Positions 17,281-37,439 of a DNA stretch of 64,000 nt are shown here, piece after piece (positions within the stretch are counted from its first letter, which is position 1; every line of letters starts with the position of its first letter). The stretch is taken from assembly GCF_002160895.1 (NCBI RefSeq), contig NZ_NFLL01000001.1, positions 62,001-126,000 of the forward strand, in the 5' to 3' direction. Source of the stretch: Faecalibacterium sp. An122. Lineage in GTDB: Bacteria > Bacillota > Clostridia > Oscillospirales > Ruminococcaceae. The notes under the pieces were generated by a model that searched no databases, was not told the DNA's origin, and worked only from the letters and a program-made list of their open reading frames with translations. Both the position numbers and the translations under genes were made by a program.

Positions 17281-18828
17281 ATGCAGCATGAAACGATGAT
17301 CGTACTGGACTTTGGTGGCCAGTATAATCAGCTGATCGCACGCCGGGTGCGTGAGAACAATGTTTACTGTGAGATCTATTCCTATAAGACCGACCTGTCG
17401 GTGATCCGCGCCAAGAATCCCAAGGGCATCATCTTCACCGGTGGTCCCAACAGCGTCTATCTGGAGGATTCGCCCAGCTGCGATCCCGAGATCTTTACCT
17501 GGGGCGTGCCCATTCTGGGCATCTGCTACGGCAGCCAGCTGATGACCCATCTGCTGGGCGGCAAGGTATCCCGCGCTCCCGAGCGGGAGTACGGCAAGAC
17601 CGAGGTCTTTGTGGACACCACCAGCAAGCTGTTTGAGGGTGTGCAGCCCTCGACCATCTGCTGGATGAGCCATAACGACTACATCGAGAAGGCCGCCACC
17701 GACTTCAAGATCACGGCTCACACGGCCAACTGCCCTGTGGCAGCCATGGAAAACGCCGAGAAGGGCCTGTACGCAGTCCAGTTCCATCCCGAGGTGCTCC
17801 ACACCGCCGAAGGCAAGAAGATGCTGCACAACTTTGTTTACAATGTCTGTGGCTGCTCCGGCGACTGGAAGATGGACTCCTTTGTGGAGAGCAATGTCCA
17901 GGCTCTGCGCGAAAAGATTGGCAGCGGCCGGGTCCTGTGCGCTCTGTCGGGCGGCGTGGATTCGTCGGTGCTGGCCGCTATGCTGGCCAAGGCCGTCGGC
18001 AAGCAGCTGACCTGCGTCTTTGTAGACCACGGCCTGCTGCGCAAGAACGAGAAGGAAGAGGTGTGCTCGGTGTTTGGTCCGGGCAACCCCAACTTTGACA
18101 TCAACTTTGTCTGCGTGGACGCCCGCGCCCGCTACTTCAGCAAGCTGGCCGGCGTCACCGAGCCCGAGCGCAAGCGCAAGATCATCGGTGAGGAGTTTAT
18201 CCGCGTCTTTGAGGAAGAGGCCAAGAAGATTGGCCAGGTGGATTTCCTGGCACAGGGCACCATTTACCCCGACGTGGTGGAGAGCGGTCTGGGCGGCGAG
18301 TCCACCGTCATCAAGAGCCATCACAACGTGGGCGGCCTGCCGGATCACGTTGACTTCAAGGACCTGGTGGAGCCCCTGCGCAACCTGTTCAAGGACGAAG
18401 TCCGCCAGGTTGGCCGCGAGCTGGGTCTGCCGGAGTATCTGGTCAACCGCCAGCCCTTCCCGGGCCCCGGTCTGGCCATCCGCATCATTGGTGAGGTGAC
18501 CCCCGAGAAGGTTGCCATCGTGCAGGATGCCGACGCAATTTGGCGCGAGGAAATCGCCAAGGCCGGCCTCGACAAGGAGATCAGCCAGTACTACGCTGCC
18601 CTGACCAACATGCACAGCGTGGGCGTCATGGGCGATGAGCGCACCTACGACTACGCCGTGGCGCTGCGCGCTGTGACCACCACAGACTTCATGACCGCTG
18701 AGAGCTACAATGTGCCCTGGGATGTGCTGGGCACCGTCACCAGCCGCATTGTCAATGAGGTCAAGCATGTGAACCGCGTCCTCTACGACTGCACCGGAAA
18801 ACCCCCCGCCACCATTGAGATGGAGTAA
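17281..18828 (+). CDS. guaA: GMP synthase (glutamine-hydrolysing)
   Basis: 515 residues from ATG 17281, seven bases after AGGAGG; an in-frame ATG at 17209 lacks such a site. It converts XMP to GMP using glutamine and ATP. The class I amidotransferase domain has GICYGSQLM (nucleophile Cys) and FHPEV (His-Glu). The ATP-pyrophosphatase domain has [14 protein letters not shown]. The C-terminal dimerisation domain ends ...PPATIEME. The last codons (GAG ATG GAG TAA) are part of a 13-bp repeat that recurs at 37427-37439: the gene is the integration site of the element that follows, and its coding sequence remains intact. Confidence 0.97.
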
Positions 18829-18829
18829 T
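18817..18829 (+). repeat. attL core at the guaA 3' end
   Basis: GAGATGGAGTAAT covers the last three codons and stop of guaA and is repeated exactly at 37427-37439. Flanking bases differ on both sides, so the identical core is 13 bp. Together with the adjacent integrase this marks the left junction of the element. Confidence 0.85.
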
Positions 18830-18885
18830 CAAACTTCTTTGAAAAACCTAGTATCTACGCGATATTTTGAAGGCGATGAGCCTCC

Positions 18886-18904
18886 TTGATACTGAATTGA
18901 TACT
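18886..18904 (+). repeat. Left integrase arm-type repeats
   Basis: TTGATACT occurs at 18886-18893 and 18897-18904, spaced 11 bp (one helical turn). An inverted AGTATC lies at 18850-18855. The same pair with the same spacing is found near the right end (37308-37325), which fits arm-type binding sites for the integrase. Confidence 0.6.
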
Positions 18905-18937
18905 AACGGGGATTACTCCAAACATAGGGACATGAGA

Positions 18938-18979
18938 ATGCCCTCTGAAAAACGGTAAGTTTTTCAGAGGGCATTTTTG
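18938..18979 (+). terminator. Intrinsic terminator just inside the left end
   Basis: A perfect 16-bp stem runs from 18938-18953 to 18959-18974, with a 5-base loop and TTTTTG on the + strand. It would end guaA transcription inside the element and shield the regulator that is encoded on the opposite strand. Confidence 0.9.
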
Positions 18980-18985
18980 TGTCCC

Positions 18986-19480
18986 TTATTCTTTTTTCCA
19001 CTTTTTCTTGGGCTGGAACTTCCCGCAGCCGTCAGAGGTCTGGGGCCAATTGAGTTTCCATTCTTGATACTCCTCTTTGGTGATCTGGCCGGCTTGAAGC
19101 TCTTTTTTACGCAGCTGCCACTCCCGCATGAACTCATCCAAAAGCCGATAGTTAAAGCTGACTGCCATGTGGGAACTGGAGGAATCAGGATCGCTTACTT
19201 CATACAGCTTGGTACTGGGGTAGTGCTCATCCAATTCGAACAGAGTATACATGATGTCTTCTGCAGCATACAAGGTGGGCTCATATAGGGAGCGGTAGTT
19301 GACATCCAAAGCCTCGGCCATTTTGCGGAGCAAATCTTCCTTGGGAGTACGTGTGTTGCTTTCATACTGTGCAATGCGGATGTCTGCACTTTTTTCATCA
19401 AAGCCTACGGCGATGCCCAATTCTTTCTGGGTCAAACCTCGAAAGTTGCGGGCACGTTTGATTCGATCTCCGACTGACAT
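18986..19480 (-). CDS. XRE-family helix-turn-helix repressor
   Basis: 164 residues from ATG 19480, with GGAGGC upstream on the minus strand. The N-terminal 60 residues form a cI/Cro-type helix-turn-helix (RIKRARNFRGLTQKELGIAVG, then IAQYESNTRTPKEDLLRKMAEAL). The C-terminal part is not recognised but has the length of a small oligomerisation or inducer domain. It is divergent from the xis-int genes across a 330-bp control region containing repeated TACTAAAC sites, so it most likely represses excision/integration and itself, as in other integrative elements. Confidence 0.8.
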   Translation of the reverse strand: MSVGDRIKRARNFRGLTQKELGIAVGFDEKSADIRIAQYESNTRTPKEDLLRKMAEALDVNYRSLYEPTLYAAEDIMYTLFELDEHYPSTKLYEVSDPDSSSSHMAVSFNYRLLDEFMREWQLRKKELQAGQITKEEYQEWKLNWPQTSDGCGKFQPKKKWKKE

Positions 19481-19516
19481 GGCGAAGCCTCCATACTAAA
19501 CATTTTTGTTGAATCT

Positions 19517-19545
19517 AGTATAACATATCAAAATAAGGATGGCAA
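19517..19545 (-). promoter_or_regulatory. Promoter of the element repressor
   Basis: On the minus strand TTGCCA (19545-19540), 17 bp, TATACT (19522-19517). A TACTAAAC site (19494-19501), the same as in the opposing promoter, lies just downstream, which suggests autoregulation. Confidence 0.72.
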
Positions 19546-19629: not shown

Positions 19630-19656
19630 AATAAAGCTTAGTAAATTGAATGACCG

Positions 19657-19806: not shown

Positions 19807-19995
19807 ATGGAAAACAGAATCTTTATGAGCGCAGCCGAAGTGGCAAATGAGCTGGGCATCTCCAAAGCCCTGGCATATAAGATGATCCGTCAGTGGAATG
19901 GGGAACTGCAGGCCCGGGGATTCACTACCATCGGGGGCCGTGTCAGCCGCCGGTATTTTCTGGAAAAGATCTATGGGGCAGAGGAGAGGGGGTGA
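19807..19995 (+). CDS. xis: Excisionase-like small DNA-binding protein
   Basis: 62 residues from ATG 19807, with GAAAGGAAG upstream; an in-frame ATG at 19738 lies within the folded leader. The helix-turn-helix segment FMSAAEVANELGISKALAYKMIRQWN, followed by a basic wing, resembles the winged-helix excisionase/MerR-like domain (HTH_17 type). It ends 4 bases before the integrase start. Size and position directly upstream of a tyrosine integrase make it the likely directionality factor. Confidence 0.72.
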   Translation: MENRIFMSAAEVANELGISKALAYKMIRQWNGELQARGFTTIGGRVSRRYFLEKIYGAEERG

Positions 19996-19999
19996 GAGG

Positions 20000-21094
20000 A
20001 TGCCAGCCTATAAAGATCCGATGAAGGAAACATGGTATACAGCCTTCTATTATGAGGACTGGAAGGGCGTCAAGAAAAAGAAATTGAAGCGAGGTTTTCC
20101 CACCAAGAAAGCTGCTCTGGCATGGGAACGGGAGTTCTTGGTGCAGAAGGCAGCAGATGTAAGCATGGAATTTGAGAAGTTTGTAGAACTTTATATCTCA
20201 GACAAAAGAGATCGGCTTCGGGAGAATACTTGGTCCACAAAAGAAAACATCATTGAAACAAAGATTCTGCCGTATTTTAAAAACAAAAGGCTGGAGGACA
20301 TCCAGCCTAGAGATGTGATTGCCTGGCAGAATGAGATGATCCAATACCGGGACCCGAGTGGAAAAGCCTACTCGCCAGCCTATTTGAAAACACTCCACAA
20401 TCAGCTGAGTGCCATTTTCAATCATGCGATCCGGTTTTATGGTTTGAAGTCGAACCCTGCAGCGATAGCTGGAAACATGGGAAAGGACAAACACAAAGAG
20501 ATGCTGTTCTGGACGAAGGAAGAGTATCTCAAGTTTGCAGATGCCATTATGGATAAGCCACAATCTTATTATGCCTTTGAGGTGTTGTATTGGTGTGGCA
20601 TCCGGGAAGGAGAGCTGCTGGCATTGACGGCAGCGGATTTTGATTTGGAAAAGGGACTCTTGTCCATCACGAAATCCTATCAACGGCTCAAGGGCCGGGA
20701 TGTCATTACCGATCCAAAGACGCCCAAAAGCGTTCGAGTTATTCAGATGCCTCGGTTTCTGACAGAAGAAATCCAGGACTATTTCAAATCCATTTATAAG
20801 CTTCAACCAAATGACCGGATTTTTCCGTTGACAAAAAGTTATCTGCACCATGAAATGGACCGAGGTTCAAAGAGCGCAGGTGTGAAACAGATTCGGATTC
20901 ATGACTTACGGCACTCCCATGTTTCTCTTTTGATTGAAATGGGTTTTTCTGCTCTGGCAATCGCGGACAGGGTAGGGCATGAGAGCATTGATATCACGTA
21001 TCGGTATGCCCATCTCTTCCCGACCCGGCAGAAGGAAATGGCAAATAAGTTGGACATGGAAAGGGGATTAGAAAATGTCACACAAAAATCGTGA
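20000..21094 (+). CDS. int: Tyrosine-type site-specific integrase
   Basis: 364 residues from ATG 20000 (GAGAGG upstream; the longer frame from 19898 overlaps xis and is rejected). The N-terminal arm-binding region (KETWYTAFYYEDWKG) is followed by a SAM-like core-binding domain (about 50-150) and the catalytic domain. Catalytic residues are visible as Arg in CGIREGELLAL, His-x-x-Arg in HDLRHSH, His in VGHESIDITYRYAH, and the tyrosine nucleophile in the same TYRYAHLFP block. This Tn916-type layout fits integration at the guaA core repeat and the paired arm sites seen at both ends. Confidence 0.93.
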   Translation: MPAYKDPMKETWYTAFYYEDWKGVKKKKLKRGFPTKKAALAWEREFLVQKAADVSMEFEKFVELYISDKRDRLRENTWSTKENIIETKILPYFKNKRLEDIQPRDVIAWQNEMIQYRDPSGKAYSPAYLKTLHNQLSAIFNHAIRFYGLKSNPAAIAGNMGKDKHKEMLFWTKEEYLKFADAIMDKPQSYYAFEVLYWCGIREGELLALTAADFDLEKGLLSITKSYQRLKGRDVITDPKTPKSVRVIQMPRFLTEEIQDYFKSIYKLQPNDRIFPLTKSYLHHEMDRGSKSAGVKQIRIHDLRHSHVSLLIEMGFSALAIADRVGHESIDITYRYAHLFPTRQKEMANKLDMERGLENVTQKS

Positions 21095-21410
21095 TGAACA
21101 CAACCGCTGGAGGAATAAAACTGTAGCATTCCGGATGTCACCGGAGGAGGACAAGCAGTTGGAAACCTATGTGAAATTGTCTGGACTGACCAAGCAGGAC
21201 TATATCATCCGCCGGCTGCTGGAAAGGGAGGTGATCGTCCAAGGAAATCCTCGGGTATTTAAGGCTTTGCGGGAGCAGCTGGTGGCTATTTTAGAAGAAC
21301 TCCGGCGGATTGAAGCCGGAGCAGAAATGGACCAGGAAATGCTGGAAGTGATCCAGATGATTGCTGTTATCTTGGATGGAATGAAGGAGGAAACTGCCTA
21401 TGGAAATTGA
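21075..21410 (+). CDS. MobC-like mobilization accessory protein
   Basis: 111 residues, starting inside the last codons of int (overlap 20 bp), so translationally coupled. The N-terminal segment NKTVAFRMSPEEDKQLETYVKLSG followed by KQDYIIRRLL has the form of a ribbon-helix-helix domain as in plasmid MobC/relaxosome proteins. The C-terminus is an acidic helix. In comparable Firmicute elements such a gene sits between int and the RepA-like ATPase. It probably binds near oriT, 2 kb downstream, but the identity is inferred from length, fold and context. Confidence 0.6.
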   Translation: MSHKNRDEHNRWRNKTVAFRMSPEEDKQLETYVKLSGLTKQDYIIRRLLEREVIVQGNPRVFKALREQLVAILEELRRIEAGAEMDQEMLEVIQMIAVILDGMKEETAYGN

Positions 21411-22602
21411 CGCAAAAGAAAAGACTGCCCTGGACTCATCTGTTGGCGCAGATGAAGGGCAGCCGATTCCAAAAGACAATAATAGTATATCCAATTCCGC
21501 TTCCAAAATCAATAATTCAAACCTAAAAACAAAAGAAGGTCTGCATGATAGACGCCGGAAAATGCAAGGTATGTTTGATCCGAACTACCTTTATACAGTT
21601 TCGATGACAGAGCTATACCAAAACACGTATAAAAGCAGGTCGGCGATCATCGAAGGGGTTCTCTATCCCGGGACGTATCTTTTGGCAGGAGCCCCTAAAA
21701 TTGGAAAGTCGTTCCTTGTAGCCCAGCTGGCTTACCATGTCAGCACTGGAAAAGAATTGTGGGGCTATCAAGTGAAACAGGGAACTGTTCTCTATCTGGC
21801 GCTGGAAGATGACCATCGCAGATTACAGGAACGAATGTATCGGATGTTTGGGACGGACAGCAGTGAAAAGTTGTTCTTTGCTACCTGTGCAAAACAGATT
21901 GGGAGTGGACTTGAGGAGCAACTGAAAAAGTTCATGCAGGAACATTCGGATACGAAACTGGTGATTCTGGATACCCTTCAAAAAATCCGGGAAGTAGGGA
22001 ATGAGAAGAACAGCTATGCAAAGGACTATGAAATCATCGGTAAATTAAAGCAGATTACCGATGAAAGCGGGTGCTGTTTTCTGCTGGTTCATCATACCAG
22101 AAAACAGCAGGCGGATGATAAATTCGATATGATTTCAGGAACAAATGGTTTACTTGGTTCAGCCGATGGAGCTTTTATGCTTGTCAAAGAAAGACGAACA
22201 GATCAGACTGCAACTCTGGATGTGTCGGGGCGTGACCAGAAGGACCAGAGAATCTATCTTACCAGAGATAACGAGCGTTTAATTTGGGAACTGGATCATG
22301 TCGAAGCGGAGCCTTGGGTGGAGCCGCCCGATGCGGTTCTGGAGGCAATTGCAGCGCTTGTAAACGAAACCTCTCCGGTATGGAATGGGACAGCTACAGA
22401 GCTTGTAACGGCTCTTGGCTTGGATCTTAAACCGAATGCCTTGGCGATGCGTTTGAATATTCGAGCTGGAAAACTAGAAGATCAGTATCATATATGCTAT
22501 ACTAGTAATCGCAACCATGCTGGAAGAAATATCCAGTTGGTTTTTACCCCTCCGCAATCCCCACCCGAACGTGACGGCCGTGACAGCCGTGACGACCTTT
22601 AA
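21400..22602 (+). CDS. RepA-like AAA/RecA-fold ATPase
   Basis: 400 residues, overlapping the previous gene by 11 bp. Walker A is AGAPKIGKSFL (about residues 91-101) and Walker B is LVILDTL. A LVHHTRKQ segment and GSADGAFML follow, the pattern of the RepA/RSF1010-type hexameric helicase family (DnaB-like AAA_25). A C-terminal winged-helix-like part extends from about residue 310. Such proteins act in replication of mobilizable elements after excision or transfer. The last 30 bases of the gene hold three GTGAC repeats that face a mirrored set downstream. Confidence 0.78.
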   Translation: MEIDAKEKTALDSSVGADEGQPIPKDNNSISNSASKINNSNLKTKEGLHDRRRKMQGMFDPNYLYTVSMTELYQNTYKSRSAIIEGVLYPGTYLLAGAPKIGKSFLVAQLAYHVSTGKELWGYQVKQGTVLYLALEDDHRRLQERMYRMFGTDSSEKLFFATCAKQIGSGLEEQLKKFMQEHSDTKLVILDTLQKIREVGNEKNSYAKDYEIIGKLKQITDESGCCFLLVHHTRKQQADDKFDMISGTNGLLGSADGAFMLVKERRTDQTATLDVSGRDQKDQRIYLTRDNERLIWELDHVEAEPWVEPPDAVLEAIAALVNETSPVWNGTATELVTALGLDLKPNALAMRLNIRAGKLEDQYHICYTSNRNHAGRNIQLVFTPPQSPPERDGRDSRDDL

Positions 22603-22653
22603 GGGGCGATGGCATCATGCAAAACTATCGTCACGGTCGTCACGGTTGTCACC
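22571..22653. repeat. Inverted 9-bp GTGAC iterons around the RepA-like stop codon
   Basis: Three tandem 9-bp units of the form GTGACNRCC occupy 22571-22597. Three mirrored units (YGTCACGGT type) occupy 22627-22652. Together they can form an imperfect 24-bp stem whose loop contains the stop codon of the ATPase gene. The position directly after a RepA-like gene suggests a replication origin or binding-site cluster; an mRNA structure is the alternative. Confidence 0.5.
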
Positions 22654-22683
22654 AACAGGAGAAATGCGAAAGGAGCAATGACC

Positions 22684-23250
22684 ATGGATTTTGAAATGAT
22701 GCAGGCGAGCATTCAGCAGGAAAAGGCAAAAAAGTTTGAACTTTTAATGCCTAAACTAATTGAGGCTGTAAAAAATCAGGATTGGGAAGAAGTGGAATCG
22801 CTTCTCACTCTCAGTCCGGACATTATGGCAGAGGGTCTGGAATATGCCTATCCGTATCTGCCGGATGAGTATAAATTTAGCATCCCGACCGATTGCTATA
22901 CCCAAAATGGAGACCATATGCCTATCGTCCGGAAATACGTCCGGCAAGCGAGAAAATATGCTCCCATAGAGAAACGAATTCCGGCAGAGATGATCTCTAT
23001 GAAAGAGATTACAATCTACCGGGCAGGTACTGAGCCTATGGACAAGGCAAGGTACCGTATCTCCTGGACAACTTCCATCGAAAAGGCACAGTGGTTTTAT
23101 GACAGGGCACTGCACTTCGGGAGCCCGGTATGCCATCTGTATCGTGGCGTCATTCGACCGGAGCAGATCATCTGGTATACCGATGATCGGAACGAAAAAG
23201 AAGTAATGCAGTATGGTTCGGTCAGGAACATTGAAGAAATAGCAAGGTAA
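22684..23250 (+). CDS. Conserved mobile-element protein of unknown function, possible ADP-ribosyltransferase-like fold
   Basis: 188 residues from ATG 22684, eight bases after GGAG; the in-frame ATGs at 22609 and 22678 lie in or against the repeat and ribosome site. The N-terminal 90 residues are helical and acidic. The C-terminal half reads IYRAGTEP, ISWTTSIEKAQWF, YRGVIRPEQIIWYTDDRNEKEV. The Arg / Ser-Thr / Glu-x-Glu order resembles the R-S-E layout of ADP-ribosyltransferase folds and of a family of phage and plasmid hypotheticals. This is a pattern judgement only. It sits between the RepA-like gene and oriT. Confidence 0.55.
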   Translation: MDFEMMQASIQQEKAKKFELLMPKLIEAVKNQDWEEVESLLTLSPDIMAEGLEYAYPYLPDEYKFSIPTDCYTQNGDHMPIVRKYVRQARKYAPIEKRIPAEMISMKEITIYRAGTEPMDKARYRISWTTSIEKAQWFYDRALHFGSPVCHLYRGVIRPEQIIWYTDDRNEKEVMQYGSVRNIEEIAR

Positions 23251-23377: not shown

Positions 23378-23495
23378 ACGGCTCCCGCAGGAGCCGTAGT
23401 CCCCCTCGGAGAGCCCCTCGGGAGAGCCCACGGCACTTTGCAGCCTCCGGCTGAAAGTGTCATAGTGGGTTATTACACTTCCGCAGAAGTGCATC
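23378..23495 (+). other. Origin of transfer (oriT) of MobV type
   Basis: Directly upstream of the relaxase lie a hairpin ACGGCTCC-CGCA-GGAGCCGT (23378-23397), a near-repeat CCCTCGGAGAG / CCCTCGGGAGAG, a hairpin CACTTT-g-CAGCC / GGCTG-AAAGTG (23434-23459), and CACTTC / GAAGTG (23476-23491). Between the last two sits TAGTGGGTTA (23463-23472), flanked by AAGTGT / ACACTT. The pMV158-type nick sequence is TAGTGTG/TTA, so nicking is predicted after 23469. The match is one base off the textbook site. Confidence 0.65.
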
Positions 23496-23543
23496 TCCCG
23501 GACCTCCCCGTATCTGCCGCCCAGTGGGCGAGAAAGGAGCGTT

Positions 23544-24803
23544 ATGGCAAGAGGCGACGGTATCGACCGTACCAGCGCGAGAAATATGAGATTGACCACA
23601 CAGAAATTGAAAAATGCCCAGCAGCATAACGAGCGCGAAAAGGACTCCTACGTCAACCCAGATATTGTCCCGGAACGCTCCCACCTGAACGTCCATTTCA
23701 AGAAGCCGGATGGCAGCTATCTGGAGCAGTTTGAGCGAATGGAGGCAGACGGCATCATCTCCACCCGCGGCCTCAAGGAGGACGCTTTCCGGTATGGAGA
23801 GCTGGTCTTTGATGTGAACTCCGCTTATTTCTTCAACCGAGGCGGGTATGAGTTTGCCAAAGAATTCTATGAAGCCGCCTATCAGGCTGCGGTTCAGATT
23901 GTAGGCGGTGAACAGTATATCCTGTCCGCAGTGATGCACGCCGATGAACGCAACCGGGCCATGTCAGATATCCTGGGTCAGGATGTCTACCACTACCACC
24001 TCCATGTGGTCTACGTCCCAGTGGTAGAAAAGCAAATCCTTTGGACCAAACGATGCAAAGATAAGTCCCTGGTGGGAAAGGTGAAGGAGACCATTATGCA
24101 GGTTAGTATGAGCAAGAAATGGGCCTCCAAACCCATCCTGGATGAAACCACCGGTGATCCGCTGCGGACCGAGAAGGGAAAACCAATCCTCAAGAAATCT
24201 TACAGCGTCCTCCAGGATGACTTCTTCCGGTATATGCAGGAAGCGGGGTATACCGATATTGAACGAGGAGAACGTGGCAGCTCGGAGGAGCATCTGACCG
24301 TAACTCAGTTTAAGGTTCAGAAGGAGCAGGAGAGACTGGCAACGCTGACCGAGCAGACCCAGCAGAAAGAGCAGCAGGCTGCCTCTCTGGAAAAGAAGCT
24401 GGAGAGAGTCCAGCGGCAGCAGGTGGAGGTACAGAAAGTGGAGCAGATTGAAGCCCGGCCTGTGCCGCTTTCCTCTAAGGTGCTTCTGGAGCGCTCAGAA
24501 TATGAAGCACTTTCAGCCGCTGCCAAGAAGTACTGTACCCAGGAGCATAAGGTGGTCAGTTTAAAGAAAGCTTTGGACGCCGCCAATGAGCTGATCGGAG
24601 AACTGAAGACCAAAGTGGCCGCTTTGAATGCAGAATTACAGGGATATAAATCGGTCCGGCGTCAGCTGAACACAGCAGGCCTGGAACAGGAAAATGCAGT
24701 CCTGAAAAAGAAGCTCCAGAGCTATGAGGCAGAAATTGAAAGGAACAAACTCTGGCATCTTTTTGACCAGTTCAACGGTAGGAAACAGAAAGAAAAGGTC
24801 TAA
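23544..24803 (+). CDS. MobV-family relaxase (plasmid mobilization protein)
   Basis: 419 residues from ATG 23544 (AAAGGAG). Motif I is HNEREKDSYVNPDIVPERSHLN (about 29-50). The metal-binding motif is VMHADERN...YHYHLHVVYVPV (about 131-160), with the His cluster of Pre/MobV relaxases. From about residue 250 the protein is a long Glu/Gln/Lys-rich coiled coil, as in other MobV C-termini. It nicks oriT and leads the strand into a recipient using a helper mating channel. The oriT-like region lies immediately upstream. Confidence 0.88.
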   Translation: MARGDGIDRTSARNMRLTTQKLKNAQQHNEREKDSYVNPDIVPERSHLNVHFKKPDGSYLEQFERMEADGIISTRGLKEDAFRYGELVFDVNSAYFFNRGGYEFAKEFYEAAYQAAVQIVGGEQYILSAVMHADERNRAMSDILGQDVYHYHLHVVYVPVVEKQILWTKRCKDKSLVGKVKETIMQVSMSKKWASKPILDETTGDPLRTEKGKPILKKSYSVLQDDFFRYMQEAGYTDIERGERGSSEEHLTVTQFKVQKEQERLATLTEQTQQKEQQAASLEKKLERVQRQQVEVQKVEQIEARPVPLSSKVLLERSEYEALSAAAKKYCTQEHKVVSLKKALDAANELIGELKTKVAALNAELQGYKSVRRQLNTAGLEQENAVLKKKLQSYEAEIERNKLWHLFDQFNGRKQKEKV

Positions 24804-27971: not shown

Positions 27972-28026
27972 GGGGCACCACCTCACTTCTAAGAAGATGA
28001 TACCCGGTTTAGCTTGCAAGGATTAA

Positions 28027-28650: not shown

Positions 28651-29235
28651 ATGAAGCTACAGGATCTTGCAAGTGTGCGCAGTGGGCTTGTGCTGTCGAG
28701 AAAGCAGGCAAAGGAACCGATAGGGTATCCATATCGTTCGATTAACCTGCGGGCCATTCAGCCGGATGCATCGATTAATCTGAGTGAAGTCGACGTGTAC
28801 CAGGCAAAGGAGCCGCTGAAACCTGAGTATCTCTCCCAAATAGGAGACATTATCGTGCGCCTGACTGCCCCCTATACAGCAGTACTAGTTGATGAAACAA
28901 CGAAGGGAATGGTAATATCCTCCAATTTCGTTGTAATTCGAATAAAGAGTGAAAAGCTTTTTCCAGAATATCTTTTTTGGCTGTTGAACACCCAAAGTGT
29001 GAAGCGTGATATTTACGAAAATGCAACCAGCAATATGCTGGGGGCTGTCAATGCGAAATTTCTGGCCGAAATAGAGATGGCACTGCTTCCAATCGAGGAA
29101 CAGCATAAACTGGCGCAGCTCTATTTGACATCCAGACGTGAAATACGGCTCCTCAGAGAATTGGCCGAAGAAAAAGAAAGATATTATGCAAAATTCCTAG
29201 ATCAGACCTACAAGAAAGTAAAGAGAGGAAAATGA
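28651..29235 (+). CDS. Short HsdS-like specificity protein (single target-recognition domain)
   Basis: 194 residues, about half of a normal HsdS. It starts with the VRSGLVLSRKQ type of target-recognition domain opening and contains a GDIIVRLTAPYTAVLVDE strand pair and PEYLFWLLNTQSVKRDI. It ends in a helical spacer (EEQHKLAQLYLTSRREIRLLRELAEEKERYYAKFL) of the kind that dimerises in HsdS. It precedes hsdM by one base. It may work as a dimer giving a palindromic target, or modulate the full HsdS at 31815. Unlike the degenerate copies often seen, this frame is intact. Confidence 0.75.
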   Translation: MKLQDLASVRSGLVLSRKQAKEPIGYPYRSINLRAIQPDASINLSEVDVYQAKEPLKPEYLSQIGDIIVRLTAPYTAVLVDETTKGMVISSNFVVIRIKSEKLFPEYLFWLLNTQSVKRDIYENATSNMLGAVNAKFLAEIEMALLPIEEQHKLAQLYLTSRREIRLLRELAEEKERYYAKFLDQTYKKVKRGK

Positions 29236-29236
29236 T

Positions 29237-30766: not shown

Positions 30767-31128
30767 TGTGGCAGACTGAATCAATGGCGGCAAATTCAGC
30801 AAGAGCCGTCTTTGAAAATGCGAAGAATGAGGCGCAAAGAGAAAATGAAGAATCCAGGTACAAAAGTAAACTGGAAAAAGGTGCAGATGCCAGTATTGCG
30901 CAGAAGGAACTTGTAAAGAATCAGGTTGATTTGTTATACAAACAAAATCGATTACTTTCTGACAACTATGACAAGTTAAAAGAAATATACGATGCGCAGT
31001 GTCAATCCACTATAGAGGCAAAAGAAGATTTGCGCAGAAGTAGGCGATATAATGCGTGGATGATGGTTGTTTCTATCATTTCGATGCTGGCTGCGATAGC
31101 AAGTATCGTAATATCGATGGTTGTCTGA
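30766..31128 (+). CDS. Small coiled-coil protein with a C-terminal membrane anchor
   Basis: 120 residues whose start overlaps the hsdM stop by one base (TAATG). Residues 15-90 are charged, heptad-rich coiled coil (KLEKGADASIAQKELVKNQVDLL, YDKLKEIYDAQ). Residues about 97-119 are one hydrophobic helix (MMVVSIISMLAAIASIVISMVV). I recognise no family. Its tight placement inside the restriction operon suggests it works with it, perhaps as a membrane tether, or is a separate defence gene carried in the operon. Alone it gives no enzymatic clue. Confidence 0.7.
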   Translation: MWQTESMAANSARAVFENAKNEAQRENEESRYKSKLEKGADASIAQKELVKNQVDLLYKQNRLLSDNYDKLKEIYDAQCQSTIEAKEDLRRSRRYNAWMMVVSIISMLAAIASIVISMVV

Positions 31129-31143
31129 CTAGGAGGTTGCTTT

Positions 31144-31818
31144 ATGATTAACGTGGATTTAGAAAAAGGAACTTATATATGCCCATATTGCGGACATGCA
31201 CAGGCATTTACGATGCCAAGACACGATTTTGAAAGCTGTGGATTTGCTTTCAAATATTCAATGAGTGAAAAGTATAAGGAGTGTTCTTTTATTATTCACA
31301 GTTTACAATGTGCAAATAAAGGTTGCGAAAGAATTTGTGTCATAGCTTTAAATATTAAGACAAACAAACAGATTGATCTTTTACCTCAGGTAACCATCAA
31401 ACAGTATCCGGACTATATTCCGGAACAAATTCGCAAGGATTATGAAGAAGCAAATTTAATCCTAGATCGCAGTCCAAAAGCAGCAGCTACTTTACTGCGG
31501 CGTTGTTTGCAAGGAATGATACATGATTTTTGGGGCATCAAAGAGAAAAATCTAAATGCGGAGATCACACGATTAAAAGATAAAGTAACACCAATGCAGT
31601 GGAAAGCAATTGATGGATTACGTCAAATTGGAAACATTGGCGCTCATATGGAAAAAGATGTCAATTTAATGATTGACATTGAACCAGATGAAGCTCAGAA
31701 GCTATTGAAGCTAATTGAAATGCTTCTGGAAAAATGGTATATAGCACGTCATGATGAAGAAGCTTTGTTAACTGAAATTATAGGGATTGCCGAAAGCAAA
31801 GAGGAACAGCGGAAATGA
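31144..31818 (+). CDS. DUF4145-domain protein with N-terminal zinc ribbon
   Basis: 224 residues with AGGAGG seven bases upstream. An N-terminal zinc ribbon pairs CPYCGH (about 13-18) with C..KGC cysteines near residue 60. The C-terminal half (ANLILDRSPKAAATLLRRCLQGMIHDFWGI ... GLRQIGNIGAHMEKD) matches the DUF4145 helical domain often found beside restriction systems. DUF4145 is thought to be related to the HEPN superfamily, but no catalytic R-x4-H is obvious here. It overlaps hsdS by ATGA. Its role in the operon is unknown. Confidence 0.78.
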   Translation: MINVDLEKGTYICPYCGHAQAFTMPRHDFESCGFAFKYSMSEKYKECSFIIHSLQCANKGCERICVIALNIKTNKQIDLLPQVTIKQYPDYIPEQIRKDYEEANLILDRSPKAAATLLRRCLQGMIHDFWGIKEKNLNAEITRLKDKVTPMQWKAIDGLRQIGNIGAHMEKDVNLMIDIEPDEAQKLLKLIEMLLEKWYIARHDEEALLTEIIGIAESKEEQRK

Positions 31819-33065
31819 CACCAGAAATCAAACAGCGCATTGCGCAGATACAGCGAGGCGAGGTGCCGAAAGGGTATACAAAAAAGAAGCAGATTTTAAT
31901 TCCAAGCAGATGGGACTATATTCAGATTCAAGATGTTGCAAAGGTCTCATCTGGGAGTACGCCCAATCGAAAAAATCCAGCATACTGGAATGGGAGTATG
32001 GCATGGGTTACTACGGGAGAACTCAGTAACGGACATGTCCATCATACGTTGGAGTCTATTACAGAAAATGCTATTGCCGAAACAAATCTTCGGGTATATC
32101 CTAAGGGAACTCTTCTGATGGCAATGTATGGACAAGGAAAAACAAGAGGTACTGTTGCTATACTTGAAATTGATGCGACGATAAATCAGGCATGCGCAGC
32201 GATTTTAACAGAGACAAAAAATATCATGTTTTTGTTTTATCAGTTGCAAAGTTCGTACAATGATATTAGGAAGCTAAGCAATACAGGAAATCAAGAAAAT
32301 TTAAATGCAGATATAATTAAAACTTACCGAATTCTGTGGGCACCTAACGACGAGCAACAAAAAATCGCCGCCATCCTCACCACCCAGGATAAGGTGATTG
32401 AACTGAAAGAAAAGCTCCTGGCTGAAAAGCAGCAGCAGAAAAAGTATCTCATGCAGCAGCTTTTGACAGGCAAAAAGCGGTTGCCTGGGTTTAGCAATGA
32501 GTGGAGTTTCCCAAGAGCTAAAGAAATCTTCGCAAATATTTCAGACAAACAACATAACGGCGATTTAAGAGTCCTTTCATCAACACAGGATAGGGGAATT
32601 GTGCCAAGAGATGAAGTGGATATTGATATAAAATATGACCCTGCTTCTTTGGCGAATTATAAAAAAGTGCAGCAAGGTAACTTTGTCATTAGCCTACGCT
32701 CATTCCAAGGCGGTATTGAGTACTCCGCTTATACGGGACTCGTCAGTCCGGCCTATACGGTCTTGACTCCGAAGAAAGATATTTCGGATGAGTATTATAA
32801 GCACTTTTTCAAGAGTACGGATTATATTAACCGCCTAAATGTTGCAGTTTACGGAATTCGGGATGGAAAACAGATCAGTTATGAGGACTTTGGACGGATA
32901 CGAATTCCTTATCCACCTGTTGATGAACAAAATGCAATAGCAACTATTTTTGCTACGTCTGACCGTGAAATTGATCTATTACGGCAGGCTGTCGAACAGG
33001 AAAAACAAAAGAAAAAAGCGCTGATGCAGCTGCTGCTGACAGGAATTGTGAGGGTAAAAGCATGA
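31815..33065 (+). CDS. hsdS: Type I restriction enzyme specificity subunit S
   Basis: 416 residues with two target-recognition domains (about 30-180 and 225-375). Each is followed by a conserved helix of the form EQQKIAAILTTQDKVIELKEKLLAEKQQQKKYLMQQLLTGKKRLPGF, the spacer that sets the distance between the half-sites. The second domain ends EKQKKKALMQLLLTGIVRVK. It begins in an ATGA overlap with the DUF4145 gene. It dictates the DNA target for the HsdM and HsdR partners. The first domain's sequence is AT-rich and unlike the second, as usual for this recombining gene. Confidence 0.92.
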   Translation: MTPEIKQRIAQIQRGEVPKGYTKKKQILIPSRWDYIQIQDVAKVSSGSTPNRKNPAYWNGSMAWVTTGELSNGHVHHTLESITENAIAETNLRVYPKGTLLMAMYGQGKTRGTVAILEIDATINQACAAILTETKNIMFLFYQLQSSYNDIRKLSNTGNQENLNADIIKTYRILWAPNDEQQKIAAILTTQDKVIELKEKLLAEKQQQKKYLMQQLLTGKKRLPGFSNEWSFPRAKEIFANISDKQHNGDLRVLSSTQDRGIVPRDEVDIDIKYDPASLANYKKVQQGNFVISLRSFQGGIEYSAYTGLVSPAYTVLTPKKDISDEYYKHFFKSTDYINRLNVAVYGIRDGKQISYEDFGRIRIPYPPVDEQNAIATIFATSDREIDLLRQAVEQEKQKKKALMQLLLTGIVRVKA

Positions 33066-33274
33066 AAGAAAATATGAAAGATAAGATTTATAATTATATT
33101 GAAAAAATTCCCGAATGTACATCACATGAAATTGCGGAGAATCTCGCAATTAATGAAATAAAAGTTGTAGAAATACTGGAGGAGCTGAGTGAGGAGTATA
33201 GAATTACTCAGCACGTTTGCCCTTTAGGAAATGTCAAAGATCCGGATTGCAGCTGTTTTTATTGTGTAATTTAA
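33062..33274 (+). CDS. Small winged-helix-like protein in the restriction operon
   Basis: 70 residues overlapping hsdS by ATGA. KIYNYIEKIPECTSHEIAENLAINEIKVVEILEELSEEYRI is a compact winged-helix pattern. The C-terminus has three cysteines (CPLGNVKDPDCSCFYCVI) that could bind metal. It may regulate the operon or adapt HsdR; similar small genes are seen in other type I operons, but no function is established from the sequence. Confidence 0.6.
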   Translation: MKENMKDKIYNYIEKIPECTSHEIAENLAINEIKVVEILEELSEEYRITQHVCPLGNVKDPDCSCFYCVI

Positions 33275-33317: not shown

Positions 33318-36300
33318 GTGGACAAATCCCTGTATTTAGAGAAAAACATCAGCCAGCAGCCGGTCATTGATTTGTTGCGGTCCATGGGATATACGTACAT
33401 TTCTCCGGCAGATTGCGAGGCTCAGCGGGGCAGTCGGTATCATGTGTTGCTGAAAGATATCCTCCGCGGCCAGCTGCGGCGGCTCAATCGGTATAGCTTT
33501 GCCGGGGCAGAAAATGAGTTCTCCGCCGCCAATATTGAACGGGCTATGGATGATCTGGACGTGCCTCTCACCGATGGCCTGGTGCGCACCAGCGAAAAAA
33601 TCTATGATGCGTTGATGCTGGGCAAGAGCTACCCGGAAACCGTGGGGGAGGGGAAAACCCTCAGTTTCAATCTGAAATATATTGACTGGGAGCACCCGGA
33701 GAATAACCTGTTTCACGTGACCGATGAATTTGCGGTGGACAGCCGGGACAAGCTCCATAATGCCCGCCCGGATATTGTGCTGTTCATCAATGGTATCCCT
33801 TTTGCGGTTATCGAGTGTAAGGCTCCACAGATCAGTGTTGACCAGGCAGTGGAACAGAACATCCGTAACCAGCAAAGCGAGTATATCCCGCAGCTCTATA
33901 AATTTGCTCAGATTGTCATGGCCACTAATAAGAATGCAGTGAAGTATGCCACCACCGCCACCCCTAAAAAATTCTGGAATGTGTGGAAAGAGCAGGACAC
34001 AGCTTTTCTGGAAGATGCACTGGCGCGTTATGTGTCGGACCGTGTGCCCACCGAGCAGGACCGGAATTTAATTTCGTTGTTCAGCAAAGAACGGGTCATG
34101 GAATTGATTCGGTACTTTGTGCTTTTTGATGCCAACGTGAAAAAAATCTGCCGGTATCAGCAGTACTTTGCTATCAAGGAGATCATCAAGACCATCCAGC
34201 AGCCCGACGAAAAGGGCAACCGGCAGAGCGGCGTGATCTGGCATACCCAGGGCAGCGGCAAGAGCCTGACCATGGTGATGCTGGCAAAGTATATCCTGAT
34301 GGAGTTGTCGGACTGCAACCCCCGTGTGGTGGTTGTCACAGACCGCAAAGAGTTGGACCGGCAGATTGCCGCCACCTTTGCCCATACCCGGCTGAACCCT
34401 GCCCGGGCTACCAGCGGGCAGAATTTGGTGGACCTTCTCAAAAACGGTAAGGCCGATGTGATAACCACCATCATCAATAAGTTCAATACGGCCGAAAAAA
34501 GAGAGCATAAGAATCTGTCCCGGGATGTCTTTCTCCTGGTGGACGAAAGCCACCGCTCCAATTACGGCTTGCTTGCCACCAAGATGAGGTCGGTGTTTCC
34601 CAATGCCTGCTATATCGGCTTTACCGGCACTCCTCTGATGAAAAAAGAGAAGAATACCATGACCAAGTTCGGCAAGCTCATCCACAAATACACCATCAAG
34701 GATGGTGTGGAGGATGGGGCGATTGTGCCGTTGATTTACGAAGGCCGTTTTGTAGAGCAGAACGTGGACGAGGAAAATATTGACCTCTGGTTTAAGCAGA
34801 CCACCAAGCGCCTTACTGAGGCGCAGCGGGATGACCTTTCCCGAAAATGGAGCAGTATCCGCCGCCTGACTTCGACCGATGCCCGCATCAAACGGATTGC
34901 GCTGGATATCAACGAGCACTTTGTCGAAGGCTTTAAGGATACCGGCTTCAAGGCTATGCTGGCCACAAACTACAAGCGGGATGCCATCCGATATCTGGAA
35001 TGCTTTGAACAGTTTGGGGATCTGACGTGTGCAGTGGTGATATCGCCCCCAGACCTCCGCGAAAGCGTGGACGACGTAGATGAAGGCGCTGACGATAAGG
35101 TAATCTCTTATTGGAATAAGATGATGAACCGTTACGGCGACGCAGATACCTACGAGGAGGCTATGAAGAACCAGTTCTGTGCAGGGGATATTGATATTCT
35201 GATTGTGTGCAGCAAGTTGCTCACAGGTTTTGATGCTCCCATTTGCCAGATCCTTTACATTGATAAGGAGCTGAAAGAACATGGGCTTTTGCAGGCGATT
35301 GCCCGCACCAACCGTCTTTATGAGGGCAAAGACTATGGCCTGATTGTGGACTATCGCGGCCTGATTGAAAAACTGGATACTGCCATGGATATGTACAGCG
35401 GTGCCGGCCTGGAAAATTTCGACAGCGAAGATCTCAAAGGCGTTGTAGTCGATGTAATGGCATCGGTGGGAGAACTGCGGGAAGCCTATACCCATTTGAC
35501 AGAATTGTTCTCGGGATTGAAAAAACCCCGCGATACAGAGGAAGTGGAAACTTTTCTTGCGGATGATAAGAAGCGAGAGAACTTCTATAACTTCCTCTGT
35601 GCGTTGGGAAAAGCTCTGCACGTGGTTCTGAATGCAGAACAGGCTTATTCAGCTATTCCCCGAGAAGAATTGAAACGCTATCAGGATACCTTTGTCTTTT
35701 TCTCCAAAGTACGCCGAAGCGTAAAGGTGCGTTACTGTGATGCCATTGACAACCAGGAATATGAACCGTTAATGCAGAATCTGCTGGACACCCATTTGTC
35801 TGTGGCAGGGCTAAAACAGATCACAAGTCCTATTGATATTCTGAACAAAGATGATTTTGAACGGGAGCTGGAACAGCTGGGATCAGCAAGGGCAAAAGCG
35901 GATGCGATTTCCAGCAAATTGACTCGGAGCATCAGCGAAAAATACCAGGAGAACCCGGCCTACTATGACAGCTTTTCCAAGCGGATCAAGAAAGCTCTGG
36001 AGCAATACAAAGAAAAAGTTATCTCTGAAGCAGAGTACTTGGCCAAGATGCGTACCATTATGGAAGACTACCATACAGGAAAGAGTACGGTGACTTATCC
36101 AGAGTCCATCAAAAACAACGTCCATGCACAGGCGTTCTATGGTGTACTATCGGCTGTTTTTGACTCAGAACAGGAAGTGGAAATTTCTTCTGACTTTGTG
36201 GCAGAAATCGCAGAAGAGATCACAAAGATTGTAGCAGATCACAGCCAGGTAGACTGGACCAATAATAAAACAATCCATGACCGAATCTCGCAGGATATTG

Positions 36301-36407
36301 ACGATTTGTTCTACCGCTATGAAAAGGAGCGAGGATTGAAACTTTCCTTTGAAACCATCGACAAGATAATTGAAAATGTTAAGACAGTAGCACTTCGGAG
36401 GTTTTAA
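33318..36407 (+). CDS. hsdR: Type I restriction enzyme endonuclease/translocase subunit R
   Basis: 1029 residues from GTG 33318, which follows AAAGGAGG. The N-terminal PD-(D/E)xK nuclease is visible as RPDIVLFINGIPFAVIECKAP (about 150-171). The SF2 motor has Walker A TQGSGKS (about 310), VVVTDRKELDRQI, DESHRS (about 409), GFTGTPL, and a C-terminal helicase lobe with LTGFDAP and QAIARTNRLYEGK. It cuts unmodified DNA after translocation. Length and motif order are complete, so the nuclease is expected to be active. Confidence 0.95.
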   Translation: MDKSLYLEKNISQQPVIDLLRSMGYTYISPADCEAQRGSRYHVLLKDILRGQLRRLNRYSFAGAENEFSAANIERAMDDLDVPLTDGLVRTSEKIYDALMLGKSYPETVGEGKTLSFNLKYIDWEHPENNLFHVTDEFAVDSRDKLHNARPDIVLFINGIPFAVIECKAPQISVDQAVEQNIRNQQSEYIPQLYKFAQIVMATNKNAVKYATTATPKKFWNVWKEQDTAFLEDALARYVSDRVPTEQDRNLISLFSKERVMELIRYFVLFDANVKKICRYQQYFAIKEIIKTIQQPDEKGNRQSGVIWHTQGSGKSLTMVMLAKYILMELSDCNPRVVVVTDRKELDRQIAATFAHTRLNPARATSGQNLVDLLKNGKADVITTIINKFNTAEKREHKNLSRDVFLLVDESHRSNYGLLATKMRSVFPNACYIGFTGTPLMKKEKNTMTKFGKLIHKYTIKDGVEDGAIVPLIYEGRFVEQNVDEENIDLWFKQTTKRLTEAQRDDLSRKWSSIRRLTSTDARIKRIALDINEHFVEGFKDTGFKAMLATNYKRDAIRYLECFEQFGDLTCAVVISPPDLRESVDDVDEGADDKVISYWNKMMNRYGDADTYEEAMKNQFCAGDIDILIVCSKLLTGFDAPICQILYIDKELKEHGLLQAIARTNRLYEGKDYGLIVDYRGLIEKLDTAMDMYSGAGLENFDSEDLKGVVVDVMASVGELREAYTHLTELFSGLKKPRDTEEVETFLADDKKRENFYNFLCALGKALHVVLNAEQAYSAIPREELKRYQDTFVFFSKVRRSVKVRYCDAIDNQEYEPLMQNLLDTHLSVAGLKQITSPIDILNKDDFERELEQLGSARAKADAISSKLTRSISEKYQENPAYYDSFSKRIKKALEQYKEKVISEAEYLAKMRTIMEDYHTGKSTVTYPESIKNNVHAQAFYGVLSAVFDSEQEVEISSDFVAEIAEEITKIVADHSQVDWTNNKTIHDRISQDIDDLFYRYEKERGLKLSFETIDKIIENVKTVALRRF

Positions 36408-36412
36408 TCGAT

Positions 36413-37138
36413 ATGCCGCAGCAGAGAACGGTATTTTATGAAGGAAGCGAAATCAGTTACCAGCTGGAACAAAAGCCGGTAAAGAACTTGAATCTCCGAA
36501 TTCATAAAGATTGCAAGGTGTATGTATCGGCCAACCCGGAAGTTCCTGTAAATAAAGTGGATGAGTTCGTGGTAAGCAAAGGGCAGTATATTTGCTCCGC
36601 ACAGAAAAAATTTGGCGAAATGGCGTTGTACTCTCCCAAACCAAAACAATATGTGAGTGGAGAAACTTTCTATATACTAGGCAAAGGCGTCCGCCTGAAG
36701 GTCGAGCAGGCCTCTCATAATACGATATCTTCGGATGGAGTATATCTGAATCTCTGCATAAAAGATCCGCAAGACTTTGAGAAAAAGAAAAGGATAGTAT
36801 CGCACTTCTTGGATTGCCAATGCGATACCACCTTTGGAGAGGTTATGTCAGAAATATATCCGGTATTTCAGAAGTATGGAGTTGCAGTGCCAGTATTACG
36901 CCTCCGAAACATGGAAACACGATGGGGCTCTTGCTTGCCTCGCAAGGGCATTATAACCCTGAATAAACGGCTGCTGGAAGCTCCACGTCACTGTATTGAA
37001 TATGTGGTCATGCATGAGTTTTGCCATTTCATTCACCCAGATCATTCTAAGCATTTCTATGCCTTTTTGACGATGCTGATGCCTGACTGGAAAGAACGAA
37101 AGAAGGTTTTGGACCAGAATGCAGTATTTTGGTTGTGA
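36413..37138 (+). CDS. YgjP-like zinc metallopeptidase
   Basis: 241 residues, starting 6 bases after hsdR. The zinc motif is HEFCHFIHPDHSKHF (HExxH), preceded by METRWGSCLPRKGIITLN, the WGSC signature of the YgjP/DUF45 family. Such genes commonly travel at the end of type I restriction operons. Targets are unknown. It is the last gene of the element; the right end lies 290 bp downstream. Confidence 0.85.
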   Translation: MPQQRTVFYEGSEISYQLEQKPVKNLNLRIHKDCKVYVSANPEVPVNKVDEFVVSKGQYICSAQKKFGEMALYSPKPKQYVSGETFYILGKGVRLKVEQASHNTISSDGVYLNLCIKDPQDFEKKKRIVSHFLDCQCDTTFGEVMSEIYPVFQKYGVAVPVLRLRNMETRWGSCLPRKGIITLNKRLLEAPRHCIEYVVMHEFCHFIHPDHSKHFYAFLTMLMPDWKERKKVLDQNAVFWL

Positions 37139-37426
37139 TTTTTAAAGTATTATATACTTGTTCGAGCGACCAAAACTAGGGATATTAAAAGTCTGGAGTA
37201 TCGAAGAAACATCATTCTATGGATTATATTACAAATATAATTTCTCTGGAAAAACGACCAAATCTATGATATAATCCTTATAAGGTTATGAGCTGGCCTA
37301 TTTTACTGATACTGCTTTGATACTAGAAATTCTGTGAAAGCTATAAAGGGTATCAAAATGGCAGAAAAACCAGCCGACAATAACCGAAACTTAAACAAAT
37401 GAGTTTAGTGACTGAAACCGCTTGCC
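37139..37426. other. Right-end non-coding region of the element
   Basis: AT-rich, no gene recognised. It holds the right arm-type repeats and a nearby inverted TATCAA (37352-37357) before the attR core. A short AAGTAT-TAT-ATACTT inverted repeat at about 37144-37158 follows the metallopeptidase gene but lacks a T-run. Confidence 0.4.
37308..37325 (+). repeat. Right integrase arm-type repeats
   Basis: TGATACT at 37308-37314 and TTGATACT at 37318-37325. The two copies are 11 bp apart, mirroring the left-end pair at 18886-18904. They lie about 100 bp inside the attR core. Confidence 0.58.
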
Positions 37427-37439
37427 GAGATGGAGTAAT
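37427..37439 (+). repeat. attR core
   Basis: GAGATGGAGTAAT, identical to the guaA terminus at 18817-18829. Here it is not in a gene, as expected for the displaced copy of the integration site. Confidence 0.83.

What the first reader, a model, noticed from the sequence alone, without database searches (positions are those of the whole stretch)
18817..37439. An 18.6-kb integrative mobilizable element precisely replaces the end of guaA
The 13-bp direct repeat at the last codons of guaA and again at 37427, the flanking integrase and Xis, and the drop in GC define the element to the base. It carries the parts for integration, replication, mobilization and defence but no secretion machinery. That it keeps guaA intact explains its stable carriage.
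Basis: partly seen in the sequence, partly recalled or inferred. Interest (0 to 1): 0.75.

Follow-up and report, generated by a model that had tools for sequence, protein, structure and literature searches.

The report
Defence-carrying mobile island in guaA
[quoted passage not shown] it is a new example of a known kind, and it lies next to what is probably the remnant of an earlier occupant.

Summary
The 13-bp repeat GAGATGGAGTAAT ends guaA (18817-18829) and recurs exactly once, at 37427-37439; the DNA between is low in GC and encodes integrase, an Xis-like protein, a NikA-like protein, an AAA_25 ATPase, MobV, a type I restriction system, and no secretion domain in the 18 ORFs scanned. It reads as an integrative mobilizable element (IME) of Faecalibacterium. 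I add: (1) a candidate oriT upstream of mobV, with TAGTGGG/TTA, one base from two mapped MobV nick sites; (2) paired arm-type repeats at both ends, the left pair at a near-fixed distance from guaA in relatives (14 of 26 guaA ends against 7 of 509 control ORF ends); (3) an integrase of this family beside guaA in 7 of 18 same-genus relatives readable past guaA, several with other defence-like cargo. That flank is probably the fossil left end of an older guaA element; this rests mainly on genome G021, since the diagnostic repeat pair has decayed in the window. guaA 3'-end IMEs, one with MobV (ATE-1), are known. Mobility and defence are inferred.

The parts
17284..18828 (+). guaA (GMP synthase), target gene, reading frame intact
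   Evidence: GATase and GMP_synt_C; 85-95% identical to 20 full-length same-genus copies
18817..18829 (+). attL core GAGATGGAGTAAT, last codons and stop of guaA
   Evidence: exact repeat
18885..18904 (+). left pair of arm-type repeats, CTTGATACT and ATTGATACT, 11 bp apart
   Evidence: 8 of 9, p=0.02 against shuffles, at +55
18926..18986 (.). hairpin, likely terminator brought by the element between guaA and the first element gene
   Evidence: 28-nt arms 89% complementary; a similar hairpin at the same place in G005, G006, G007, G010, G015, G029 (by eye)
18986..19480 (-). HTH repressor-like gene
   Evidence: HTH_19/HTH_3
19807..19995 (+). excisionase-like protein
   Evidence: HTH_17 and ICEBs1 Xis, both below curated cut-offs; phrog_989 E=3e-17
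20000..21094 (+). tyrosine integrase (start chosen by comparison with relatives; searches used 19979-21094)
   Evidence: Phage_integrase, Phage_int_SAM_3, Arm-DNA-bind_4; 80-82% aa identity over most of its length in G005, G006, G007, G010, G015
21075..21410 (+). NikA-like mobilization accessory protein
   Evidence: PF21983 E=4e-13
21400..22602 (+). AAA_25 RepA/DnaB-like ATPase, possible replication function
   Evidence: PF13481 E=1e-32; replicative helicase/primase phrogs
22609..23250 (+). unknown ORF
   Evidence: no Pfam, PADLOC or NCBIfam match; phrog_4776 of unknown function
23418..23507 (+). candidate oriT; TAGTGGG/TTA, nick predicted between 23469 and 23470
   Evidence: non-coding block conserved upstream of mobV in five elements; 23410-23510 folds at z=-4.7; exact 27-mer in 6 viral-collection contigs, all 6 just upstream of a MobV relative; mapped MobV nicks TAGTGTG/TTA and TAGTGCG/TTA
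23544..24803 (+). MobV relaxase
   Evidence: Mob_Pre E=5e-32; NCBIfam MobV E=1e-11, below cut-off
24947..27442 (-). KAP-type NTPase, cargo
   Evidence: PF07693 20.4 bits against cut-off 20; lies in a 2.9-kb stretch that is about 60 bp in G021
27729..28019 (-). small Cro/C1-type HTH gene
   Evidence: HTH_26
28145..28564 (+). short ORF, truncated relative of a G021 element gene (in-frame stop near its beginning)
   Evidence: 88% identical to G021; translation
28651..29235 (+). half-size HsdS
   Evidence: PF01420, one stretch; PADLOC Specificity_I
29237..30766 (+). HsdM
   Evidence: N6_Mtase, HsdM_N
30766..31128 (+). small unknown ORF within the R-M operon
   Evidence: no match
31144..31818 (+). 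DUF4145 protein
   Evidence: PF13643; PADLOC PD-T7-4 E=2e-19
31815..33065 (+). full-size HsdS
   Evidence: PF01420, two stretches
33062..33274 (+). small unknown ORF
   Evidence: no Pfam match
33318..36407 (+). HsdR
   Evidence: HSDR_N, SWI2_SNF2, T1RH-like_C
36413..37138 (+). YgjP-like metallopeptidase
   Evidence: PF01863
37307..37326 (+). right pair of arm-type repeats, TGATACTGC and TGATACTAG, 11 bp apart
   Evidence: 7 of 9, 120 bp before attR; six relatives and G020 have an 8 of 9 pair 121 bp before theirs
37427..37439 (+). attR core GAGATGGAGTAAT
37440..37590 (.). right flank; probably the decayed left end of an older guaA element (arm-pair remnant 37495-37516, hairpin 37543-37576)
   Evidence: 70% identical to G019 behind guaA (105 of 151) and 64% to the flank right of the G021 element (90 of 140), above 40 shuffles each; arm pair intact in G021 and identical over 20 bases behind guaA of G044

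Best explanation
An integrative mobilizable element of the guaA-targeting tyrosine-integrase kind, in Faecalibacterium. Integrase, with the Xis-like protein for excision, recombines a 13-bp core on the element's circle with the last codons of guaA; the element's own core copy rebuilds the end of guaA, and a hairpin about 100 bp on probably ends transcription. After excision, MobV with the NikA-like protein would nick oriT upstream of mobV, and the strand would leave through the secretion system of a co-resident conjugative element. The variable part, between mobV and attR, carries a type I restriction-modification operon plus a KAP NTPase. The element inserted next to guaA, probably in front of the remnant of an earlier guaA element. 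Shown: boundaries, gene content, conserved att and oriT-like sequences, a local empty site, related elements at the same site. Inferred: excision, nicking, transfer, helper, defence activity.
For: Exact 13-bp repeats. G019 has guaA, no integrase by profile in the 20 kb read, and guaA joined to sequence homologous to 37440 onward (97 bp at 79%, E=8e-13; 105 of 151 bases; no integrase). An integrase of this family beside guaA in 7 of 18 same-genus relatives readable past guaA. In the genome collection 20 loci matched the integrase: guaA adjacent in 13, guaA-like core without guaA nearby in 4, cut by the contig start in 2, neither in 1; at least four of the 13 are the same genomes as in the 7 of 18. 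Filled and empty pair with the same flank: G006 and G026. Arm pairs. oriT. VirD4-type coupling proteins (PF02534) match at 8 places in the same genome, all on other contigs.
Against: No read data: no circular junction or empty site seen within the strain. None of the 18 relatives read has the gene at 37592 behind guaA. MobV and Xis matches lie below NCBIfam cut-offs. The oriT block was aligned in five elements only, two of them (L072, L074) nearly identical. One small element gene is truncated. In several relatives the two cores are not identical (one difference in G010, G015, G029 and L066; three in G021). One locus of 20 (L078) shows no guaA.
Confidence: 0.9

Rival explanations
1. A formerly mobile island, now fixed: ends and genes remain but excision or transfer is lost.
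For: One small ORF is truncated. Relatives show that such elements decay in place: G029 has a shortened integrase and no NikA-like match; G012 and G023 have left ends without integrase.
Against: Integrase, Xis-like, NikA-like, AAA_25 and MobV frames and both att cores are uninterrupted here.
Confidence: 0.2
2. The stretch right of attR (37440-37590) is simply the native 3' flank of guaA, not a fossil left end.
For: It is shared by three sister genomes. In the window the arm pair is not significant (7 of 9, p=0.10). In G019 the best pair is another one, TTTGATACA/TTTGATTCA at +80 (8 of 9, p=0.007), outside the usual place; the window has its counterpart, G021 does not.
Against: In G021 the same flank has a pair (8 of 9, p=0.007) at +54, where integrase-bearing elements have theirs, identical over 20 bases to the sequence behind guaA of G044, another family, which is followed by a repressor, an Xis-like gene and a 69-residue integrase match (no full integrase by profile there). 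G025, G026 and G028 have a hairpin soon after guaA (by eye) and no pair at that place.
Confidence: 0.25
3. A phage satellite or prophage remnant rather than an IME.
For: Integrase, Xis and repressor occur in both; several backbone genes match PHROGs families of integration, regulation, replication or unknown function; MobV relatives turn up in a viral-contig collection.
Against: No structural, packaging or lysis family among 10 ORFs scanned with PHROGs nor among 18 with Pfam; MobV itself has no PHROGs match; relaxase and oriT present.
Confidence: 0.03

Closest known systems
ATE-1 of Trueperella pyogenes (IME; tables in Guedon et al. 2017, PMC5704250, passages seen)
   Same: Tyrosine integrase, 3' end of guaA, MobV relaxase; listed as an IME
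   Different: Actinobacterial host; different accessory genes; sequences not compared here
Streptococcal IMEs/ICEs in guaA (PMC5357655, PMC4701971, PMC12479173; passages seen)
   Same: 3' end of guaA, tyrosine integrase, direct repeats holding only the exact 3' end of guaA
   Different: In the 144 IMEs of PMC5357655 tyrosine integrases go with MobT or Rep-like relaxases; MobV alone went with one serine integrase
GIsul2 (PMC9376610; passages seen)
   Same: Integrates in the 3' end of guaA; excision and integration shown by experiment
   Different: Found in gammaproteobacteria, about 15 kb, drug-resistance cargo
Listeria guaA-lmo1096 hotspot (PMC10059834; one passage seen)
   Same: Variable elements behind guaA, R-M systems among them
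   Different: Different genus; no element compared here
IMESag-rpsI (PMC5090054; passages seen)
   Same: MobV relaxase with nick TAGTGCG/TTA in an oriT just upstream of the gene
   Different: Integrates in rpsI; MobV sequences not compared here

Membership tests
Integrative mobilizable element (own relaxase, no T4SS) | Integrase and att direct repeats in the chromosome | tested here: met
Integrative mobilizable element (own relaxase, no T4SS) | Relaxase and oriT | tested here: met
   Mob_Pre and conserved oriT-like block; nicking itself not tested
Integrative mobilizable element (own relaxase, no T4SS) | No secretion (mating pore) genes of its own | tested here: met
   none among 18 ORFs in Pfam; PF02534 only on other contigs
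Integrative mobilizable element (own relaxase, no T4SS) | Excision and transfer by a helper | not testable with these tools
   needs reads, PCR or mating
guaA 3'-end element | Direct repeat limited to the 3' end of guaA | tested here: met
   repeat = last three codons, stop and one base
guaA 3'-end element | Empty site continuous across the repeat in a relative | tested here: met
   about 150 bp in G019; longer synteny not met
MOBV mobilization module (pMV158 type) | Nick sequence like TAGTGTG/TTA upstream of mob | tested here: met
   TAGTGGG/TTA at 23463-23472, 74 bp upstream of the mobV start
MOBV mobilization module (pMV158 type) | Relaxase passes curated family cut-offs | tested here: inconclusive
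   Pfam Mob_Pre passes; NCBIfam MobV 44.8 bits against 100
Type I restriction-modification system | HsdR, HsdM and HsdS genes together | tested here: met
   activity not tested

The most novel reading that the evidence does not exclude
The guaA 3' end in Faecalibacterium and other Clostridia is a rotating dock for defence cargo: one integrase-Xis-MobV chassis family keeps arriving with different anti-phage systems, newcomers insert next to guaA in front of their predecessors, and failed occupants leave recognisable left-end fossils, so the DNA behind guaA is a layered record of past occupants. The window shows a current layer upon a fossil one.
Probability: 0.5. Interest if true: 0.5.

Novelty: new member of a known kind. 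Interest (0 to 1): 0.38.

Why it matters
Faecalibacterium is an abundant gut commensal whose genomes are said to hold considerable numbers of ICE/IME-type elements (PMC6295017, abstract start and passages seen). A delimited element with predicted att arms and oriT gives a concrete candidate for mobilization tests, and the guaA site shows how defence genes may be swapped between strains. The arm-pair signature may offer a way to recognise dead occupants of an integration site that have no genes left.

Tried and rejected
Considered and rejected: a prophage (no structural, packaging or lysis family in 18 ORFs with Pfam and 10 with PHROGs); a chance repeat (about 0.002 expected); the KAP gene as a common defence gene (the viral-contig scan found no relative; the window's genome was the only match at 1e-20 in 295 genomes of the order, and one other, 28% identical, matched at 1e-10 among 398 of the phylum, own included). 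The roughly 64 kb between guaA and the second element in G022 and G003 was suspected to be a VirD4-type ICE; no PF02534 match lies there, so it is left unnamed. MobV against the plasmid collection: 54 records, none covering 80% of the query, best 82% over 63% in a Subdoligranulum record. Papers: five searches were answered; I saw only the listings of the best matches and passages of ten papers, and noticed none on guaA elements in Faecalibacterium; the one search aimed at that pairing failed. That is no proof of absence. Structure prediction and fold searches were not used. An earlier count said 'all attL' and '7 of 8 elements'; the recount gives 19 of 20 and 6 of 8 scanned, as in the report.
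Full report
Observation. The repeat GAGATGGAGTAAT lies at 18817-18829, where it spells the last three codons, the stop and one further base of guaA, and again at 37427-37439. No other exact copy is in the window; about 0.002 copies would be expected from base composition. guaA is open over 514 codons (Pfam) and 85-95% identical to the 20 full-length same-genus copies found. GC is 0.454 between the repeats, 0.60 to the left and 0.594 to the right of 37600. One copy of the repeat plus the element is 18,610 bp.

Host. The window's genome is of the same genus by the tool's kinship column; its species is not known to me.

Gene content. From the left: repressor-like HTH, Xis-like, tyrosine integrase with an arm-binding domain, NikA-like, AAA_25 ATPase, an unknown ORF, oriT-like block, MobV, KAP NTPase (opposite strand), small HTH, a truncated ORF, then half HsdS, HsdM, unknown, DUF4145, HsdS, unknown, HsdR and YgjP. 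The 18 element ORFs scanned with Pfam held no secretion or phage-structure domain, and 10 of them scanned with PHROGs matched families of regulation, integration, replication or unknown function only, MobV, KAP and the truncated ORF none. VirD4-type coupling proteins (PF02534) match at 8 places in the same genome, all on other contigs; whether any can serve as a helper is not known.

Boundaries and relatives. Thirty same-genus relatives were searched with guaA. In 18 I could read past guaA (about 2.7 to 40 kb); in G001 and G013 the contig ends at or within about 100 bp of its end, in G024 inside it; nine have no full-length match. Of the 18: seven have an integrase of this family beside guaA (G005, G006, G007, G010, G015, G021, and G029 with a shortened one); two (G003, G022) have a more distant integrase (41%) on the other strand; G009 has repressor and Xis homologues before its contig ends; eight show no integrase by my profile in the stretch read (G012, G019, G020, G023, G025, G026, G028, G030). 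G019 is the local empty site: guaA ends in the same 13 bp and runs straight on into sequence aligning to 37440 onward, 79% over 97 bp in BLAST and 105 of 151 bases to the hairpin. Beyond that the two genomes differ; the Fe-type alcohol dehydrogenase at 37592 has its best same-genus relative at 59% identity elsewhere and no match within the stretches read behind guaA. G006 and G026 form a clearer filled and empty pair with the variant core GAGCTCGAGTAAT. In the genome collection the integrase gave 20 loci: guaA is adjacent in 13 (in L082 facing the other way); a guaA-like core stands at the left end, without guaA in the upstream DNA held, in 4 (L066, L069, L072, L083; presumably tandem); two contigs start too close (L074, L081); L078 shows neither. 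At least four of the 13 (L067, L068, L070, L071) are genomes already counted among the 18.

att anatomy. A 9-mer repeat pair 11 bp apart is the best pair at +52 to +57 behind the core in 19 of 20 left ends examined (10 same-genus ones with the window, 10 loci from the genome collection); in G021 it is at +67. Scores are 7 to 9 of 9, p against shuffles 0.000 to 0.19; two of the 20 (G003, G022) belong to the distant integrase. With a threshold of 8 of 9 at +45 to +62, 14 of 26 guaA ends (window included; L001-L028 without L002 and L004) pass against 7 of 509 ends of long stop-to-stop frames on both strands (Fisher p=6e-16, too small because the guaA sequences are related). The repeat letters change with the integrase: TGATACT, TGATAGCA, TGACAACA, TGGCAAC, TGACATCA. 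A second pair lies inside the right end, 120 bp before attR in the window (7 of 9) and 121 bp before it in G006, G007, G010, G015, G029, L066 and G020 (8 of 9); G021 gave no such pair there. These are the expected places for integrase arm sites; that the integrase binds them is inferred.

Fossil flank. The sequence right of attR is related to that behind guaA in G019 and to that right of the G021 element (90 of 140 bases). In G021 it contains TGTGGCAACGGTTTGGCAAC at +54, 8 of 9, p=0.007. The same 20 bases stand at +56 behind guaA of G044, a genome of another family, followed there by homologues of the repressor (36%), the Xis-like protein (53%) and the first 69 residues of the integrase (46%), but no full integrase by profile. 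Against: in the window the pair has decayed (7 of 9, p=0.10), and in G019 the best pair is a different one at +80, with a counterpart in the window but not in G021. So the inference rests on G021 and G044. Other scars: G012 has a left end like that of G005 and G007 without integrase; G023 has that of G021 (arm pair only 6 of 9); G029 has a G003-type left end behind its element; G020 has a right end of the window's group 2.1 kb from guaA. G030 has a weak pair at +107 and is left open. Such remnants and insertions beside them are known in principle as CIMEs and accretion (PMC5704250, passages).

oriT. The 90 bp at 23418-23507 are strongly conserved upstream of mobV in G021, L072, L074 and L075 while much of the non-coding sequence before it is not (L072 and L074 are nearly identical). 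The stretch 23410-23510 folds at -24.6 kcal/mol, z=-4.7. TAGTGGG/TTA differs by one base from the nick sequences TAGTGTG/TTA (pMV158 MobM) and TAGTGCG/TTA (MobSag) given in PMC5090054 (passages). An exact 27-mer found 6 contigs of the viral collection; in 6 of 6 it sits 61-76 bp before a MobV relative of 57-80% identity (L110 and L112 look alike).

Mosaic and cargo. Against G021 the window shares mobV at 92% and NikA-like at 87% but integrase at 67%; against G006 integrase is 81%, NikA-like 60%, and mobV gave no match, though G006 has another Mob_Pre protein. Eight elements have both ends (window, G006, G007, G010, G015, G021, G029, and the second element in G022, L066), 7.0 to 18.6 kb; their two cores are identical in the window, G006 and G007, differ by one base in G010, G015, G029 and L066, and by three in G021. 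Only selected cargo ORFs were scanned. PADLOC matches were found in six: window (type I R-M, DUF4145), G006 (GmrSD type), G010 (type II R-M, caspase-like, TIR), G015 (type I R-M and CD-NTase), G021 (cytosine methylase, NgoMIV-type nuclease, Vsr, GmrSD_N) and G007 (type I R-M). G029 carries an ORF of the same length and visible sequence as that of G006 but was not scanned. L066 carries a nitroreductase and an HxlR regulator, no PADLOC match. Defence function is by homology throughout.

Verdict. The finding is real and largely read correctly. It belongs to a known kind: elements in the 3' end of guaA, among them a MobV IME (ATE-1), streptococcal IMEs and ICEs, GIsul2 and the Listeria guaA hotspot (passages). 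What I add is the oriT, the arm sites, the family picture and the likely fossil flank.

Noticed in passing
window 24947-27442: KAP NTPase of 831 aa with very few relatives: no other genome among 295 of the order at 1e-20 and one other (28% identity) among 398 of the phylum at 1e-10. Possibly an undescribed defence gene.
   Followed up: partly
window 28651-33065: Type I R-M genes with a half-size HsdS ahead of HsdM and a full-size HsdS behind it, with DUF4145 and small unknown ORFs between; two specificity genes could allow alternative specificities.
   Followed up: no
L066 and L069 (about 64 kb behind guaA in G022 and G003), L072, L083: Elements of this family with a guaA-like core at their left end but no guaA in the upstream DNA held; presumably tandem accretion at guaA.
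   Followed up: partly
G001 (L004), G013 (L002), G005 (L037), G009 (L053): Several draft contigs end close behind guaA or inside the element there, as repeated att-bearing DNA could cause; element counts from drafts are lower bounds.
   Followed up: no
window 37392-37408 and right ends of relatives: A palindrome-like stretch (TAAACAAATGAGTTTAG in the window) lies shortly inside attR in the related elements, seen by eye; role unknown.
   Followed up: no
plasmid hits H2-H6 (Salmonella, Klebsiella, Enterobacter, Citrobacter): A MobV relative at 43% identity, annotated plasmid recombination protein, occurs in five large enterobacterial plasmids.
   Followed up: no
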